From IMG/VR virus record IMGVR_UViG_3300021057_000011, positions 1 through 64,000 of that record: a stretch of DNA of 64,000 nucleotides; one strand, 5' to 3'. Each line of letters opens with the position of its first letter. Position 1 is the stretch's first letter. This document shows, piece after piece, positions 18,006 through 59,397 of this stretch. The translations under genes and the position numbers were made by a program. The stretch is from a virus. The notes under the pieces are model-generated. The model worked only from the letters and a program-made list of their open reading frames with translations, searched no databases and had not been told where the DNA came from.

Positions 18006-19580
18006 TCAGGCGGGTATGAGAGCCCGCAAAAGCGCATAGACAGGGGTTCCTACCTGCCTGTGAGAGCGTGTGGAATGATCCAAGTAGCCGGGATGGTAGT
18101 TGGCGCTTTCCACAAATTCCAGGGCATAGGCCTCGGGGATATAAGCGAGGTGAATATCGACCGCTCCGGGGCTGATGATGAGGTGCTCGACGAGCTGTTC
18201 CAGCTGTCGGTTTTTTTGCTCGGTGGAGAAGTCGTCCCAGTGGGCCAGGACCCGCTGGGCACTCTCGACGGCAGCGGAGGTCGCGTAGGACTGGGTGCGC
18301 AGATGGGCAAGCTCGCCTTCGAGGCGGGGGATTTCCTGCTCGAGGGCTTTTTTCTGGGCCTCGAACTTCGCGTCCATCGCAGCGAAACGCTCCTCGCTCC
18401 ATTTGCCCGAGAGAAAGAGCTGGAAGGTTTTTTCCTGGTCTCTGAGGGTCTGAGCCAGGTCTTTCTTGGCGCCGGCGAGCAGGGTTTCCTTGGCCGTGAT
18501 GTGGGTCTCGAGCTGCTCAATCGGTTGGGTCAGGGCTTCCGGGGCCGCAAAGAAGGTGGTCAATCGCTGCCGGAAAATCGCTTCGAGCACGGTGAGCCGG
18601 ATCTGGGTGTGGCAGGCCCGGCAGCGGAATTTTTGGGTCTTGTGCTGCTTGCGGTCGTCGCAGTACATCTTCTTGCCGCAGTGGCATTTGACAAAGCCAC
18701 TGAAGGGGTAAACCCCTTTCTTGGACTTCGCCGGCGGGCGCTTGGTGTAGTCGGCCATCAATATATGATAGGTGGCCTGCCAGAGCTCCCGAGGGATGAT
18801 CGGCAGGGTGGTGTGGTAGAGCCACTCCGCTTCGGGCTTGGGGAGGCAGGTGCTGGTTTTCAGCCCGCGCTTGAGGGTCGAGTAATTCGCCTTGCGCCGC
18901 CCGATGCCGGTTTCGTCCAGCAGCAGGTAGCGGACCGAGGAATCGCTCCAAGCCCCGCCGCGCTGAGTTTTGTAGCCGCGGCGGTTCATCTCGGTCGCCA
19001 CCGTGCGGCAGCGGCGGTGCTCCAGAAACAGGGTGTGCAGTTCGAGCCGAATCGAGGCCGTGGGCGGATGGGGCACCAGGACCCCGTCCTGCCATTCGTA
19101 CCCAAACGGCGCTTTGCCGCCGAGGTGCTTGCCGAGCTGGGCCCGGACCTTGACACTGGCCACCATGCGTGAGCGGATGTTCTCCCAGTCCCACTCCGCC
19201 AGCACGGCGATGATGCCGTAGAGCATCCGGCCGTGGGGGGTGGAGGTATCGAGGTTCATGTCCAGGCAAATCAAGGCCGCATTTTTTTCCTGGCACAGGT
19301 CCGCGACATTCAACAGCACCTTGCGCCGGCGGGCGAGACGTTCGAGCTTGGAGAACATCAGGCCCTTGATGCGGCCGGCGGTGATATCGTCGACCATGCG
19401 CAGGTACTCCGGGTGCTCCTCGACGATCATGCCGCTGACCCCGTCGAGGACATAGACCGCGGCCACCTCGCGCTGGGAGCGCTCGGCATAGGCTTTGCAC
19501 GCAATCAAATGGTGCTCGAGGCTGTCGGAATCGGGATCATCTTTCGAGACCCGGGCCCACACGCCAACGGGAATACTCAT
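18006..19580 (-). CDS. Large serine recombinase (integrase)
   Basis: A 524-residue protein that would integrate or excise the phage genome by serine-linked strand exchange. The resolvase domain occupies residues 1-150: VGVWARVSKDD (nucleophilic Ser in RVS), SLEHH (usual family form SLExQ), FSKLERLARR and GRMLYGIIAVLAEWDWENIRSR. A recombinase domain follows with GKAPFGYEW. The zinc ribbon is CHCGKKMYC..CRAC near residues 305-330, followed by a long coiled coil. The start MSIPVG at 19580 overlaps the next gene by ATGA, so it is co-translated with a small gene. A terminator lies immediately downstream. The gene points to a temperate lifestyle; no attP was proven. Confidence 0.92.
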   Translation of the reverse strand: MSIPVGVWARVSKDDPDSDSLEHHLIACKAYAERSQREVAAVYVLDGVSGMIVEEHPEYLRMVDDITAGRIKGLMFSKLERLARRRKVLLNVADLCQEKNAALICLDMNLDTSTPHGRMLYGIIAVLAEWDWENIRSRMVASVKVRAQLGKHLGGKAPFGYEWQDGVLVPHPPTASIRLELHTLFLEHRRCRTVATEMNRRGYKTQRGGAWSDSSVRYLLLDETGIGRRKANYSTLKRGLKTSTCLPKPEAEWLYHTTLPIIPRELWQATYHILMADYTKRPPAKSKKGVYPFSGFVKCHCGKKMYCDDRKQHKTQKFRCRACHTQIRLTVLEAIFRQRLTTFFAAPEALTQPIEQLETHITAKETLLAGAKKDLAQTLRDQEKTFQLFLSGKWSEERFAAMDAKFEAQKKALEQEIPRLEGELAHLRTQSYATSAAVESAQRVLAHWDDFSTEQKNRQLEQLVEHLIISPGAVDIHLAYIPEAYALEFVESANYHPGYLDHSTRSHRQVGTPVYALLRALIPA

Positions 19581-20860: not shown

Positions 20861-21211
20861 TCATACCATGGAACGGGAATACTCCTCCCGGGCATTCAGC
20901 CATTTGCCGTTTTTATAGGCCACAATGTAGCTGCAGTCCTCGAGAATGATGCTCACCACCATGCCCACGTTGAAGTGATCGAGAATGTACACCCACTTGA
21001 TCTGCCGGAAGGGCTCCTGAAAAACGGCAACGGCCTGTTCCACAACGCTGTACTGCGTTTCATTGTCGCCGGCTTCGTAAAGCATCTGGCCCCAGTAGGT
21101 GTGGTTCTCTTCATGAAGCTTGCGGCCTTGAAACGTCCGCCAGGCGCGAATCCCGTTTTGCCCCCGGCCCTCGACTTTCTCGGCCACCTCGAAAAACGTC
21201 TCTGCGCGCAT
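20861..21211 (-). CDS. Hypothetical protein, 116 aa
   Basis: An alpha/beta protein (MRAETFFEVAEKVEGRG; VYILDHFNVGMVVSIILEDC). AGGAGG precedes the start. It is the first gene left of the structured RNA region, so its mRNA may begin within or after that element. Confidence 0.75.
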   Translation of the reverse strand: MRAETFFEVAEKVEGRGQNGIRAWRTFQGRKLHEENHTYWGQMLYEAGDNETQYSVVEQAVAVFQEPFRQIKWVYILDHFNVGMVVSIILEDCSYIVAYKNGKWLNAREEYSRSMV

Positions 21212-21284
21212 ACCATCCTCCTGTAAGTAAACGTCCCCATGGAATGGGGAAAAGAGGATCGATCAGATCGTATCATGAAACGGC

Positions 21285-21552
21285 GAAACCCTCCGGGAGG
21301 ATCTTTCGATCGCCGGAGGGCTTCAGGAGAGCGCCGAAGCGCTCAGGGGTGCTGCAGATGCGCGGGAGGAGAGTTGCCCCTCTCCCGGGGCCGGGCTGAG
21401 CCCATCCCACACGGCCGAAGCCGGGGAACAAACCGCCTGACGCACACCCTTGGCCGAAGCCACTATGCCCGCCGGAGCGGGTTTCTGCCTGCCGGGCAAC
21501 GGGTCCCGGGGTTAACCGGAAGGCCGCCGGCAGAGGAGGGAGCCATCTGCAA
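21285..21552 (-). ncRNA. Candidate structured RNA, about 265 nt, no known class
   Basis: Read on the minus strand, this G+C-rich segment folds into a chain of stable hairpins: CCCGC-UCCG-GCGGG (21468-21481), UGGC-UUCG-GCCA (21451-21462), CGGC-UUCG-GCCG (21412-21423), GGGC-UGA-type stem (21393-21403), a GGAGAG stem (21368-21385), GAGCGC-UUCG-GCGCUC (21329-21344) and a CCCUCCGG stem whose inner GAUC stem has a GAAA loop (21289-21320). A 7-bp helix pairs 21544-21550 with 21354-21360 and encloses most of them. UUCG, UCCG and GAAA loops arise only on the minus strand. A promoter-like TAGGCA-17-TATGAT lies at 21560-21588 and predicts a start near 21553. No protein frame with a ribosome site is present. 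I matched no motif of RNase P, tmRNA, 6S or SRP RNA. Confidence 0.6.
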
Positions 21553-21559
21553 CAACTTC

Positions 21560-21588
21560 ATCATAACCTAATCTTAAACGGATGCCTA
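21560..21588 (-). promoter_or_regulatory. Candidate promoter for the structured RNA
   Basis: Minus-strand TAGGCA (21583-21588), 17 bases, TATGAT (21560-21565; 5 of 6 to the sigma-70 consensus). The predicted start near 21553 is three bases before the closing helix of the RNA. The same -35 hexamer and spacing recur upstream of the SpoVS-like gene. Confidence 0.5.
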
Positions 21589-21618
21589 GTCCCCTAGCTA
21601 AAAATTTTTGAAAAAAGT

Positions 21619-22044
21619 TTAGGGGGCACTGAAAAGGGTGGGGGTTTTGGTATCGTCCTCGAGCAATTCGAAACGACCCTCGGCGGTAGCCAGGTAGACG
21701 ACCACGGGCTTTCCCTGCGCCCGCAGCTTGCAGACCGTATCGTAGGTGCCGCGGCTTTCTTTGAGGGGCTTGTCGACGATGGCGAGGCCGGCATTGGCAT
21801 CCCGGGCGATGAAGGTGTTGCGCTTGAACCCCGCCACCTTTCCGTATTCATCCCACTTAGCCGGGTGGATAATCGGCGGCTGAAGGGACAGACTGGTCGT
21901 CAGAGGCATCGTAAAGCCATCGGCTCCTCGAGCTCCTCCAGACACCAGCTGGGTTGTCTCGGGGAAGTGCTGCTTCACCGCCCGCAGGGCCTCGACCACA
22001 TAAGTGGGAGAGACGGTGCGGGATCCGATCATGGCGAGTTTCAC
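21619..22044 (-). CDS. SLOG / YspA-like (DUF2493-type) nucleotide-binding protein
   Basis: A 141-residue Rossmann-like protein with GSR near residue 6, VSGGARGADGF near residue 31, a KWDEYGKVAGFKRNTFIA segment and ESRGTYDTVCKLRAQGKPVVV. These match the SLOG family related to DprA and LOG lysine decarboxylase-like proteins, which bind nucleotides or their derivatives. GTG start at 22044 overlaps the stop of the HTH gene (GTGA). Some SLOG proteins act in defence signalling or ligand sensing; here only ligand binding is a fair inference. Confidence 0.8.
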   Translation of the reverse strand: MKLAMIGSRTVSPTYVVEALRAVKQHFPETTQLVSGGARGADGFTMPLTTSLSLQPPIIHPAKWDEYGKVAGFKRNTFIARDANAGLAIVDKPLKESRGTYDTVCKLRAQGKPVVVYLATAEGRFELLEDDTKTPTLFSAP

Positions 22045-25963: not shown

Positions 25964-25997
25964 GGGGACTCCAGAGAAGGGTAAGTTAGGCCTGAAC

Positions 25998-26043
25998 GCT
26001 GCCGGCCCAGAGATATGTCAGGCCCGCCAGAAGGGGCCGGCAG
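25998..26043 (-). other. Long hairpin downstream of the micro-ORF
   Basis: GCTGCCGGCCC and GGGCCGGCAGC form an 11-bp perfect stem around a 24-base loop that itself contains a smaller hairpin. There is no U-tract, so it is more likely an mRNA stabiliser or processing site than a terminator. It lies between the 17-codon micro-ORF and the next gene. Confidence 0.5.
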
Positions 26044-26049
26044 CAGGGG

Positions 26050-26103
26050 TTAGCGGTAGTACCACATAATCCAGATAAAGATCACGACAATGAAGAGTTC
26101 CAT
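26050..26103 (-). CDS. 17-residue hydrophobic micro-peptide
   Basis: The ATG at 26101-26103 follows AGGAGGTG by six bases and opens MELFIVVIFIWIMWYYR, ended by TAA. The peptide is one uninterrupted hydrophobic helix with a C-terminal YYR. It lies between two leftward genes, 24 bases after the stop of the 26128-26754 gene. A similar peptide is encoded at 28607-28663 on the other strand. A membrane-active toxin-like, holin-regulator-like or membrane-marker peptide are possibilities; none is shown by the sequence. Confidence 0.6.
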   Translation of the reverse strand: MELFIVVIFIWIMWYYR

Positions 26104-26127
26104 CCGCGCCACCTCCTCTCTATTTGA

Positions 26128-28107: not shown

Positions 28108-28201
28108 ATGTAAACCTCTCCTTTAAAAAAGTAATTCACCCGGGATGTGGGAGCTTTTTCAAGCACACACATGCCGGGCAGATACACACGTTGTCAGCGG
28201 A

Positions 28202-28329
28202 TTTTTTTTATCGGGCTCTGAAATTTTTCTGACCCATAGCTTTACCTACAGGCCATCAACTTTTTTTTTGCAGAGCCGGATTTTTTTTCTGAGCACTGAC
28301 TTTTTTTTGAGCCGGCTCAGATTTTTTTT
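28202..28329. repeat. Phased T-tracts (curved DNA)
   Basis: T-tracts start at 28202 (8 T), 28224 (5), 28261 (9), 28281 (8), 28301 (8) and 28322 (8). The last four are spaced 20, 20 and 21 bases, close to two helical turns, and the earlier ones fit the same phase with one gap. Phased A/T tracts bend DNA. A perfect 12-bp palindrome (TGAGCCGGCTCA, 28308-28319) lies between the last two tracts. Confidence 0.75.
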
Positions 28330-28368
28330 CCGCCTAGGGGTCCATATGGCTATGGGGTCCCTAAGTCT

Positions 28369-28397
28369 ATCTTAACATTAAGAATCTTAAATCCCAA
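28369..28397 (-). promoter_or_regulatory. Candidate promoter for the 419-codon gene
   Basis: Minus-strand TTGGGA (28392-28397), 17 bases, TAAGAT (28369-28374) with an extended TGn just upstream of the -10. Start would be near 28362, giving a leader of about 255 bases that contains the T-tracts (A-tracts in the RNA). Confidence 0.45.
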
Positions 28398-28404
28398 CCA
28401 AGAA

Positions 28405-28482
28405 GGTTAAGGATAGGTCAAGGAAGAGATTAAGCTTCGGTTAAGTTATCATATAACGTCTAGGTTATGAGCGTTTTCGCTC
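28405..28482. promoter_or_regulatory. GGTTAA / TCTAGGTTATG motif cluster
   Basis: GGTTAAGG (28405), GGTTAA (28439) and TCTAGGTTATG (28459-28469) occur in order, followed by a GAGCG-TTTT-CGCTC inverted repeat (28469-28482). GGTTAA to TCTAGG is 20 bases. The same motifs in the same order and with the same 20-base spacing are at 59336-59390. They could be iterons of an origin or a phage regulator's sites. Confidence 0.5.
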
Positions 28483-28497
28483 GATCGGATTTCTTTT

Positions 28498-28527
28498 TTG
28501 ATCCCATTCGCTCCTGTTCGATCCAAT
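28498..28527 (+). promoter_or_regulatory. Tentative plus-strand promoter for the micro-ORF
   Basis: TTGATC (28498-28503), 18 bases, TCCAAT (28522-28527). The predicted start near 28534 is immediately upstream of a long imperfect hairpin (28540-28580) in the micro-ORF leader. Each hexamer matches the consensus at only four positions. Confidence 0.3.
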
Positions 28528-28606
28528 TTGGATCTAAATGAAGAAAGGCTCAACCAGTACCAGTGGTGAGCCTATTCTTCAACCTAACAGAAAGGAGGTG
28601 CCAGCT

Positions 28607-28663
28607 GTGAACTGGATCCCTGTTGTTGCTTACGCCCTTCTGCTGACCTACTACAGCCGTTAG
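28607..28663 (+). CDS. 18-residue hydrophobic micro-peptide, plus strand
   Basis: AAAGGAGGTG (28591-28600) precedes GTG at 28607 and opens MNWIPVVAYALLLTYYSR, then TAG. It is the only convincing plus-strand gene in the window. The core is hydrophobic and the tail YYSR is like the YYR of the 26050-26103 peptide. A hairpin of 12-13 bp lies in its leader at 28540-28580. Features resemble type I toxin mini-genes (short hydrophobic peptide, structured leader), but no antisense RNA was demonstrated. Confidence 0.6.
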   Translation: MNWIPVVAYALLLTYYSR

Positions 28664-28703
28664 TATACCCGGTTATGGTCGGGTTTCACACCCAAGACGT
28701 CGC

Positions 28704-30408: not shown

Positions 30409-31146
30409 TTAGTAATGAGGGTAATAATCACGGGTCGGTTTGGACGGCAGACCGAGGTGGTCCCAGCGCCGCTGGATGTCCTGGCGCTGCTGATCGATCT
30501 CGGCTATCTCTTCCGTCCGCCGGATCCGCCGGCCAAGGGGGGTCTTGCGGACCGGGTCCTTGCTTTTGAGCCGCCGATCCGGCCGGGTGAGGTCTTCGTC
30601 CAAGCGCTGGACCAGCAGGACCAGAAAAAAAGCCACATCAAGATCGGTGTCGGTCGCCTCCTGCATGAAGATGGTGGATGCAAAGCAAAAGACCCGCATC
30701 GATTCCTGCAGCCGCGCGCGGAAGGCCCGATCGGTGCGCTCGGCGTGGAGAATGCGGGCAAAGAAAAAGCAGACCTGCCCCTGGAGAAAGTAGGGGCAGG
30801 AAGTGGCGAAGGCGCACTTGCTGCACCAGGGGGAATCGAAGTAGGGAACGGCTTTCAAGGCGGCCTTGGGGGTCAGGTTCTTGCCCTTGAAATGGGTGCG
30901 GAAGTTGAAGCGGGGTTTGGGATCGGGCGTGTGGATAAACTTGCGGGCCACGTCCAGGACGCAGTCCAGGTAGCTCAGGTGAAAGGCCTGGGCCAGCACC
31001 GAGCCGGATTTTTTTCCGTGCAGCGCGTAATCGTAGCGCGGGATGCTAGCTAAACCGGGATGGATCGAAAGGGTCCGGCTCGCCGGCAGCGCCGGGATCA
31101 TCCGTGTCTCGTTCCGATAGCGGAGTGGTGGGGTAGATTTCGCCAT
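30409..31146 (-). CDS. Cys-module protein next to the TGT-like gene
   Basis: A protein of about 245 residues. Residues 108-130 carry WCSKCAFATSCPYFLQGQVC (C108, C111, C117, C126) followed by FFFA and a helical block ending LDVAFFLVLLVQRLDEDL. The adjacent TGT-like protein has the same module near its C-terminus. Four cysteines in this spacing could hold zinc or Fe-S. The start is uncertain: 31146 (MAKSTP) or 31101 (MIPALP); either overlaps the neighbouring gene by 55-100 bases. Function unknown. Confidence 0.75.
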   Translation of the reverse strand: MAKSTPPLRYRNETRMIPALPASRTLSIHPGLASIPRYDYALHGKKSGSVLAQAFHLSYLDCVLDVARKFIHTPDPKPRFNFRTHFKGKNLTPKAALKAVPYFDSPWCSKCAFATSCPYFLQGQVCFFFARILHAERTDRAFRARLQESMRVFCFASTIFMQEATDTDLDVAFFLVLLVQRLDEDLTRPDRRLKSKDPVRKTPLGRRIRRTEEIAEIDQQRQDIQRRWDHLGLPSKPTRDYYPHY

Positions 31147-32599
31147 CGTCATCGTCCTCAAACAGATCTTTCACTTTGTCCTGGGTGGCCTGGGTGGGCA
31201 GCACCGTCTTGGCACCGACCTTGGGCATGGTGCGCTCGACCTTTTCCAGCTGCCCGAAGGCATTGGCCATCTTGATGAAGGTCCCGAGCTCCTTGCTCAG
31301 GGCCGGATCAAAACTGCCGCCGGTGCGGGCCTCGATCATGGCCCCGTGGTGGATGCGGTTGGCCTGCAACGACGAGAGAGCCCCGAGCACCCCCTTCATG
31401 TCGTTCATGGAGCCGATGGAGACCATGTTGGCGTAGTAGCAGCCGGCATCGGGCTTGTAAGCTTCGCAGGCAGACGGCGCATCCCCCAGCGGCCGCAGCT
31501 GGCAGGTATTGCACTGCCGCGGCATCAGCATGCGCGGGTCGATGTACGGGCTCAGGCCCTCGGGCAGCATGGTCTGGATCGGGGTGTTGCGAATCATCTC
31601 GGCGCTGCGGGCCACCTGGGTGTACTGGGCCTCGGCATCGGGGGTGACCCCCAAACCGAAGGTCTCGATCATCAGATCCTTGGCCTTGGCCTGCTCGGCG
31701 GCGGTGAGCCAGTAGGACTGGACGATGTGCAGCGCGGCATAATCGGCATAGCATTTCCAAGCGTGTGCGTTCATGGTGTGCACCGCAGCGGAGTCGTCCT
31801 TGAAAATGCCCTCGACATCAAGGCCCGCGGCGATGAACTTGTGCCGGTACTTGTTGCGGATCTCCTCTTTGTGATCGGAGTTAAAAGCCTGCAACCGGTG
31901 GTTGTCCCAGATGTAGGTGACCCCGTACTTGCCACCGGCGAGCCAGGACGCCGAGTCGACGGAGAAGTAGGGCGAGCGGTTGATCGAGCCTTCATCAACA
32001 GCCCCGTGGGCATGCATCAGGATGCCTTTGTCGGCGAAGCTGCGCTGGAGCCCCTGCAGCTCGGGGCTGACACTCTCGGTCAGCTCCGGGTGCAGGGCCA
32101 CGACCGGGAACTTGTAAAAGCCGTGCTCCTTGAGGGCGCCCAGATGGGCCCGGCGCACCACGGGCACGACCCGGATGCCGTTGTCGCGCAGCTCGTCGAG
32201 GTGGTCCTTGCGGAACTGCTCGGACAGCTGGCTGGCCAGGTCGACCTCGAAGACCCAGGTGAAGACCTCGGCCATCTCCTGCACGTACTCGAGGTACTCA
32301 GCGGTGTAGGCCTGGATCTCGGCGACGGTGGCCGGCTTGCCTTTTTTGGCCTGCTGGATGTAAGCCTGCCCGCCGGCATCGAGCAGCACATGGTCGAACT
32401 TCGCCAGCTGCTGTTTGACCTTGGTCGGGTTGTGGTTGCGCAGGTAGAAATAGGAGACCAGGATATTGCGGATCCCGGCTTTGTAGGCGTAGCTGCGCAG
32501 GGTGTCGTTCTCCGCGCCGCCGAGGAAAATCAGCTTGCCGTAGACCTCGTGCTGCAGCGGCCGCATCTTGGGGTACTCGGCATTGAAGTCACGATACAT
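31046..32599 (-). CDS. TGT / DpdA-like protein with C-terminal Cys module
   Basis: A 517-residue protein. The first 235 residues look like a tRNA-guanine transglycosylase-type TIM barrel: FLGGAE near residue 26, LVSYFYLR, HVLLDAGGQAY (D74, compare DSGGF in the family), WVFEVDLASQ, MHAHGAVDEG and YFSVDSASW (D215, in the place of the nucleophilic Asp). Phage DpdA enzymes of this superfamily insert 7-deazaguanines into DNA (established for other phages). Residues 363-390 hold C363, C366, C378 and C387 in a module shared with the next gene. preQ0-synthesis genes are not in this window, so substrate supply would come from elsewhere. The catalytic assignment is by motif inspection only. Confidence 0.55.
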   Translation of the reverse strand: MYRDFNAEYPKMRPLQHEVYGKLIFLGGAENDTLRSYAYKAGIRNILVSYFYLRNHNPTKVKQQLAKFDHVLLDAGGQAYIQQAKKGKPATVAEIQAYTAEYLEYVQEMAEVFTWVFEVDLASQLSEQFRKDHLDELRDNGIRVVPVVRRAHLGALKEHGFYKFPVVALHPELTESVSPELQGLQRSFADKGILMHAHGAVDEGSINRSPYFSVDSASWLAGGKYGVTYIWDNHRLQAFNSDHKEEIRNKYRHKFIAAGLDVEGIFKDDSAAVHTMNAHAWKCYADYAALHIVQSYWLTAAEQAKAKDLMIETFGLGVTPDAEAQYTQVARSAEMIRNTPIQTMLPEGLSPYIDPRMLMPRQCNTCQLRPLGDAPSACEAYKPDAGCYYANMVSIGSMNDMKGVLGALSSLQANRIHHGAMIEARTGGSFDPALSKELGTFIKMANAFGQLEKVERTMPKVGAKTVLPTQATQDKVKDLFEDDDDGEIYPTTPLSERDTDDPGAAGEPDPFDPSRFS

Positions 32600-58907: not shown

Positions 58908-58942
58908 AATCGTCTCCTTTTTCAGTGGGCTCAAAAAACGGC

Positions 58943-58974
58943 AAAAGCCCGGAAGGGAATCCCTTCCGGGCTTT
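58943..58974. terminator. Bidirectional-type terminator hairpin
   Basis: AAAGCCCGGAAGGG/CCCTTCCGGGCTTT 14-bp stem with minimal loop; U runs follow on the minus strand. It lies just upstream of the 58907 start, so it may act on transcripts entering from the right. Confidence 0.85.
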
Positions 58975-59050
58975 GTCCGGGTCATAAGCGCCAGCGACAT
59001 AACCAACGATACAAAGCGATGTTCACAGTTCCTCCTGCAAATCGACAGAT

Positions 59051-59087
59051 AAAAAAAGGGCCCGGAGCTCACTCAAGCTCCGGGCCC
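59051..59087 (-). terminator. Rho-independent terminator
   Basis: GGGCCCGGAGCT/AGCTCCGGGCCC 12-bp stem with 6-base loop and seven U on the minus strand. Confidence 0.9.
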
Positions 59088-59160
59088 GAAAGGTTTACAT
59101 AGGAATATTTTTTCTAAGGGGATCCGATAGACAGTTCTTGGGAAACGGAATGGCGGCTCA

Positions 59161-59178
59161 AATAACGTACACGTTATT
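59161..59178. promoter_or_regulatory. Inverted repeat AATAACGT-AC-ACGTTATT
   Basis: A perfect 8-2-8 inverted repeat between T-tracts in the control region, of the size of a dimeric repressor site. Confidence 0.45.
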
Positions 59179-59221
59179 CAGATTTTTTTCCGAGCCACTC
59201 TTTTTTCTACAGGCTCCCTAT

Positions 59222-59259
59222 AAAAATCAGCCGCTGCATATAACAGCGGCTGATTTTTT
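59222..59259. terminator. Bidirectional terminator
   Basis: AAAATCAGCCGCTG/CAGCGGCTGATTTT stem with 7-base loop and U runs in both directions; it separates the structural/late genes to the right from the leftward operon. Confidence 0.9.
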
Positions 59260-59335
59260 CTGCCACGGGACCGCCCTGTGGCCTAGAGAATTCAAGCACT
59301 TTCAGATTAAGAGCCGTTTATGATAGGGTTATCAA

Positions 59336-59390
59336 GGTTAAGGTTTAGGGTTAAACTTTGGTTAACAAAACCCATGGCCTCTAGGTTATG
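59336..59390. promoter_or_regulatory. GGTTAA / TCTAGGTTATG motif cluster, second copy
   Basis: GGTTAAGG (59336), GGTTAAA (59349), GGTTAA (59360) and TCTAGGTTATG (59380-59390). The last two are 20 bases apart as in the 28.4-kb copy. Adjacent T-tracts (59183-59189, 59201-59206) echo the other control region. Confidence 0.5.
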
Positions 59391-59397
59391 CGGCTTT

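What the first reader, a model, noticed from the sequence alone, without database searches (positions are those of the whole stretch)
21285..21590. Candidate novel structured RNA with its own promoter
Seen: about 265 nt on the minus strand contains seven or more stable hairpins, mostly capped with UUCG, UCCG or GAAA loops, plus a 7-bp helix (21544-21550 with 21354-21360) enclosing most of them. The promoter-like TAGGCA-17-TATGAT predicts a start near 21553, a few bases before that helix. No coding frame with a ribosome site fits. Established: C(UUCG)G and GNRA loops are typical of functional RNAs. Inference: this is a phage ncRNA of a class I cannot match.
Basis: partly seen in the sequence, partly recalled or inferred. 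Interest (0 to 1): 0.8.

Follow-up and report, generated by a model that had tools for sequence, protein, structure and literature searches.

The report
Orphan structured RNA in a phage
A 270-base non-coding stretch of an unusual phage genome very probably encodes a tightly folded RNA that matches no known RNA family, but no relative was found in any other sequence searched, so whether it acts alone or switches the gene after it cannot yet be told.

Summary
On the minus strand, 21285-21556 folds to about -145 kcal/mol (z -3.8 against shuffles; plus strand only -1.6) into a multi-branched domain closed by a long helix P1, followed by two strong hairpins. Its most unusual feature is four C(UYCG)G-capped hairpins in 272 nt: shuffles of the same sequence average 0.04, and none of 20,000 reached four. 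Every reading frame across it scores below every called phage gene. It lies in a 407-nt gap between a DprA/SLOG-like gene and an orphan 116-aa gene of a 101-kb tailed phage. No Rfam family matches, even permissively. Promoter matches as good as TAGGCA-17-TATGAT are at chance frequency in this window. The last hairpin lacks a proper T-run. The next gene begins only 74 nt further on, and its Shine-Dalgarno is predicted to be sequestered. No homologue was found in viral, phage, plasmid or about 1,000 bacterial genome records, so covariation could not be tested. Apparent hits proved to be coding sequence or matched control noise. I favour a phage-encoded stable structured RNA starting near 21553; a cis-acting leader is a close second.

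The parts
21600..21609 (-). A5T5 tract at -47 to -56 from the predicted start, where the distal part of an UP element would lie
   Evidence: sequence; UP-element position from general knowledge; inference
21560..21588 (-). promoter-like TAGGCA-17-TATGAT (-35 at 21583-21588, -10 at 21560-21565); predicted start about 21553
   Evidence: chance-level frequency in the window
21285..21553 (-). predicted structured RNA (about 269 nt)
21542..21553 (-). P1, 5' strand, pairs with 21351-21363; begins at the predicted transcript start
   Evidence: pair probability 0.8-1.0
21489..21533 (-). P2, long bulged hairpin, loop UUAACC
   Evidence: mostly 0.95-1.0
21429..21487 (-). P3, long arm with UUCG cap; competes with a local CCCGC-UCCG-GCGGG hairpin (21468-21481)
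21405..21428 (-). P4, UUCG-capped hairpin
   Evidence: core 4 bp at 0.97-0.99
21388..21403 (-). P5, small hairpin with two registers
   Evidence: 0.46 and 0.52
21364..21386 (-). P6, hairpin with GCAA loop
21351..21363 (-). P1, 3' strand
21329..21344 (-). P7, GAGCGC-UUCG-GCGCUC
   Evidence: 0.99-1.0
21285..21324 (-). P8, long GC-rich hairpin with GAAA cap, followed by TTTCGCCGTTT (weak terminator-like or processing hairpin)
21217..21257 (-). predicted hairpin hiding the Shine-Dalgarno AGGAGG (21217-21222) of the next gene
   Evidence: 0.69-1.0; rank 10 of 115 genes
20861..21211 (-). 116-aa gene downstream, no relative found
21619..22044 (-). upstream gene, DprA/SLOG-like, 141 aa

Best explanation
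A phage-encoded stable structured RNA is transcribed from the minus strand, starting near 21553 so that its first base pairs into the closing helix P1, and ending at or after hairpin P8 (about 269 nt). The P1-closed domain with tetraloop-capped arms, plus P7 and P8, most likely works as a folded RNA that binds a partner (a protein, the RNA polymerase or a host factor) rather than as a message or an antisense RNA. Shown: the sequence, the predicted fold, the excess of tetraloop hairpins, the lack of coding signal. Inferred: transcription, the start and end, stability and function.
For: Fold z -3.8 on the minus strand against -1.6 on the plus strand. Four C(UYCG)G hairpins in 272 nt, shuffle mean 0.043, 0 of 20,000 reaching 4; 5 of the 33 tetraloop hairpins of the 101-kb minus strand lie here. 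These loops exist only on the minus strand, which points to that strand as the RNA. No coding signal in any frame. P1 begins at the predicted +1, and an A5T5 tract lies where an UP element would.
Against: No homologue, hence no covariation. Promoter quality is at chance level. P8 lacks a proper T-run and is not called a terminator. The next gene starts 74 nt after P8 in the same direction. The fold energy is not exceptional once 70% GC is regressed out.
Confidence: 0.42

Rival explanations
1. It is a long structured 5' leader (342 nt from the predicted start to the ATG) of the 116-aa gene and the small genes after it. The folded domain controls translation, through the hairpin that hides the Shine-Dalgarno, or elongation, as a riboswitch-like or antitermination element.
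For: Same strand, 74 nt from P8 to the ATG, strong AGGAGG. The Shine-Dalgarno is predicted paired (0.69-1.0) with GATCCTC upstream, and a second GATCCTC lies inside P8, so the two could compete. No good terminator between. HK022 put RNA is a precedent for an RNA near a phage promoter that acts in cis on RNA polymerase (PMC9378689).
Against: Shine-Dalgarno sequestration ranks only 10th of 115 genes. The put RNAs are about 70 nt with two stem-loops, far smaller. No homologue shows conservation together with the gene.
Confidence: 0.33
2. It is an intercistronic block of stable hairpins in a long polycistronic transcript that slows, terminates or protects transcripts (processing or decay signals), without a specific tertiary fold.
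For: Other non-coding gaps of this phage are also rich in hairpins and terminators (58.9-59.4 kb). No promoter is needed.
Against: The tetraloop cluster and the P1 helix closing five arms are more than a row of hairpins; no other gap has such a tetraloop cluster.
Confidence: 0.13
3. It works as DNA, for example as a replication origin or recombination site: an AT-rich stretch beside GC-rich inverted repeats, 1.6 kb upstream of a large serine recombinase gene.
For: AT-rich 21590-21620 next to GC-rich repeats; recombinase at 18006-19580.
Against: The stability is strand-specific and the loops are RNA-type tetraloops on one strand only. No clear GC-skew turn at this place in the coarse profile.
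Confidence: 0.07

Closest known systems
GOLLD and ROOL phage RNAs
   Same: structured phage-encoded RNAs of unknown function with many helices (PMC12286853)
   Different: much larger (GOLLD often above 800 nt), conserved families, often near tRNA islands; no Rfam match here and no tRNA gene in the window
HK022 put RNA
   Same: phage RNA near a promoter, paired almost from its first base, acts through its fold (PMC9378689)
   Different: about 70 nt and two stem-loops; here about 270 nt and seven hairpins; no sequence relation tested
HEARO / omega RNA (IscB guide RNA)
   Same: multi-hairpin non-coding RNA of mobile elements (general knowledge)
   Different: no Rfam hit, and no IscB or TnpB among the neighbouring genes tested

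Membership tests
Any Rfam 15 family (4227) | match at or above the curated score | tested here: not met
   none in the window; at E up to 10 only two implausible hits, to human families, far below threshold
GOLLD / ROOL | covariance model match | tested here: not met
   no Rfam hit
HK022 put-like antitermination RNA | about 70 nt, two stem-loops, binds RNA polymerase and suppresses pausing and termination | tested here: not met
   size and architecture differ; activity not testable
Riboswitch-type leader | structured domain followed by an expression platform upstream of a gene | tested here: inconclusive
   Shine-Dalgarno hairpin predicted but only 10th of 115; no ligand class matches
Conserved structured RNA class | homologues with compensatory base changes | tested here: inconclusive
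   no homologue found
Protein-coding gene | frame with coding-type codon usage | tested here: not met

The most novel reading that the evidence does not exclude
A new class of phage structured RNA of about 270 nt, with a multi-branched, tetraloop-capped fold closed at its very 5' end, that binds a host or phage protein or RNA polymerase during infection.
Probability: 0.3. Interest if true: 0.7.

Novelty: new member of a known kind. Interest (0 to 1): 0.4.

Why it matters
Structured phage RNAs with no known function are few, and those known (GOLLD, ROOL) turned out to form unexpected assemblies. A compact candidate outside all Rfam families would be worth probing. As a single sequence without relatives it is a candidate, not yet a class.

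Tried and rejected
1) Six related phages hit the same RNA segment. Reading the loci showed what looks like coding sequence throughout, four of them one conserved gene and another the capsid gene, so rejected. 2) A Chloroflexota genome (G232) shares a 45-nt core with P2/P3 in a 196-bp element present twice. A reversed-sequence control in the same genomes gives 41 bits against 45.5, searches in other phyla give 42.8-43.7 bits, nearly all such hits lie in long open frames, and the core pattern occurs in no other of 400 Chloroflexota genomes. Kept only as an unproven lead. 3) The core pattern in viral contigs: two hits, one inside a 1,369-aa open frame and one in a 50% GC contig, neither with further similarity to the RNA. 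4) Single-sequence covariance model R1: only itself. 5) Close relatives through polymerase, helicase, capsid or neighbour genes: none in viral contigs; the capsid alignment finds only relatives at 34% identity or less. 6) Protein-coding explanation: rejected.

Full report
WHAT IS THERE. The window is part of a 101,449-base IMG/VR record of a tailed phage: DNA polymerase, DnaB-like helicase, UvsX-like recombinase; capsid and portal distantly like Streptomyces phage BRock; a terminase-like large protein (read by eye); a large serine recombinase at 18006-19580. Nearly all genes are on the minus strand. The finding lies in a 407-nt gap (21212-21618) between a DprA/SLOG-like gene (21619-22044) and a 116-aa gene without relatives (20861-21211). 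No frame across the gap has phage-like codon usage.

STRUCTURE. Minus strand 21285-21556 folds to -145.1 kcal/mol, z -3.82, against -1.57 for the plus strand. Pair probabilities give a long closing helix P1 (10 continuous pairs, 21544-21553 with 21351-21360, plus two more), five arms inside it (P2-P6), then P7 and P8. Caps are UUCG three times, GCAA and GAAA.

IS IT MORE THAN CHANCE. Energy alone is good but not unique: background windows have mean z -0.52 and sd 1.31, with one of 60 lower; terminator-rich gaps at 28 and 59 kb score lower; and after regressing on GC the region is ordinary. The tetraloops decide the matter: four C(UYCG)G hairpins, shuffle mean 0.043, none of 20,000 reaching four, none on the plus strand, and only ten in the whole minus strand of 101 kb; counting GNRA loops too, 5 of 33.

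PROMOTER AND END. TAGGCA-17-TATGAT is present and would start the RNA at about 21553, the first base of P1. An A5T5 tract lies at -47 to -56. But matches of this quality occur at chance frequency in this window (7 found, 6.8 expected), so the promoter is plausible by position and not shown. P8 is followed by TTTCGCCGTTT, a poor T-run. A terminator of this phage at 58944-58974 has a similar broken tail, TTTTGCCGTTTTTT, so weak termination is possible.

RELATIVES. None was found. DNA and pattern searches: phages, viral contigs, plasmids, 41 viral records that share the capsid, and about 1,000 genomes of the phyla of G049, G045, G050 and G044. A covariance model built from the single sequence finds only itself in 52 records and genomes. 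Two tempting leads were tested. Six phage hits at one segment look like coding sequence. A 45-nt core shared with a Chloroflexota element is only slightly above a reversed-sequence control (45.5 against 41 bits). Without relatives, covariation could not be tested.

HOW IT MAY WORK. The leading reading is a free, stable, folded RNA that binds a partner. The close rival is a structured leader of the 116-aa gene: its Shine-Dalgarno AGGAGG is predicted paired at 0.69-1.0 with an upstream GATCCTC, and a second GATCCTC sits inside P8, so a switch between two partners can be drawn. Sequestration this strong is found in about one gene in twelve here, so it is a hint only. HK022 put RNA shows that a phage RNA near a promoter can act on RNA polymerase through its fold (PMC9378689), but it is about 70 nt with two stem-loops. 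GOLLD and ROOL show large structured phage RNAs of unknown function (PMC12286853), but neither model matches.

VERDICT. Observation confirmed, interpretation partly supported: a credible orphan structured RNA, with promoter, end, conservation and function all open.

Noticed in passing
L008:15018-18308 (- strand; genome 98018-101308): The terminase large subunit seems to carry two intein-like insertions: one inside the Walker A motif (FARQ-CVHPDTYVL...LQHN-SGKTE) and one at KIRK-CLAGDTEIF...SSN-SISPMA. Judged by eye from the translation.
   Followed up: no
21563 (+), 28468 (-), 59389 (-): ATAACCTA occurs three times in the 101 kb, each time in a long non-coding gap; the copy at 21563 overlaps the putative -10 box on the opposite strand. 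Possibly a phage regulatory site.
   Followed up: partly
28108-28703: A 596-nt non-coding gap with low fold z (-5.1 in its first part), and on the minus strand a row of A7-A9 tracts separated by GC-rich words such as GAGCCGGCTC.
   Followed up: no
58908-59397: Non-coding gap with at least two strong intrinsic terminators in tandem and fold z -5.3.
   Followed up: partly
25964-26127: Possible tiny membrane-peptide frame on the minus strand (MELFIVVIFIWIMWYYR) with a Shine-Dalgarno-like AGAGGAGGT upstream, seen in the gap sequence.
   Followed up: no
31046-32599: Gene related to queuine tRNA-ribosyltransferase (phrog_887), suggesting a role in queuosine-type modification.
   Followed up: no
L116:1453-1648 and L121:1409-1604: A 196-bp element, 92% identical, occurs twice between genes of one Chloroflexota genome; GC-rich, no Rfam match in the copy scanned (L116); shares a 45-nt core with the phage RNA that is not clearly above chance.
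   Followed up: partly
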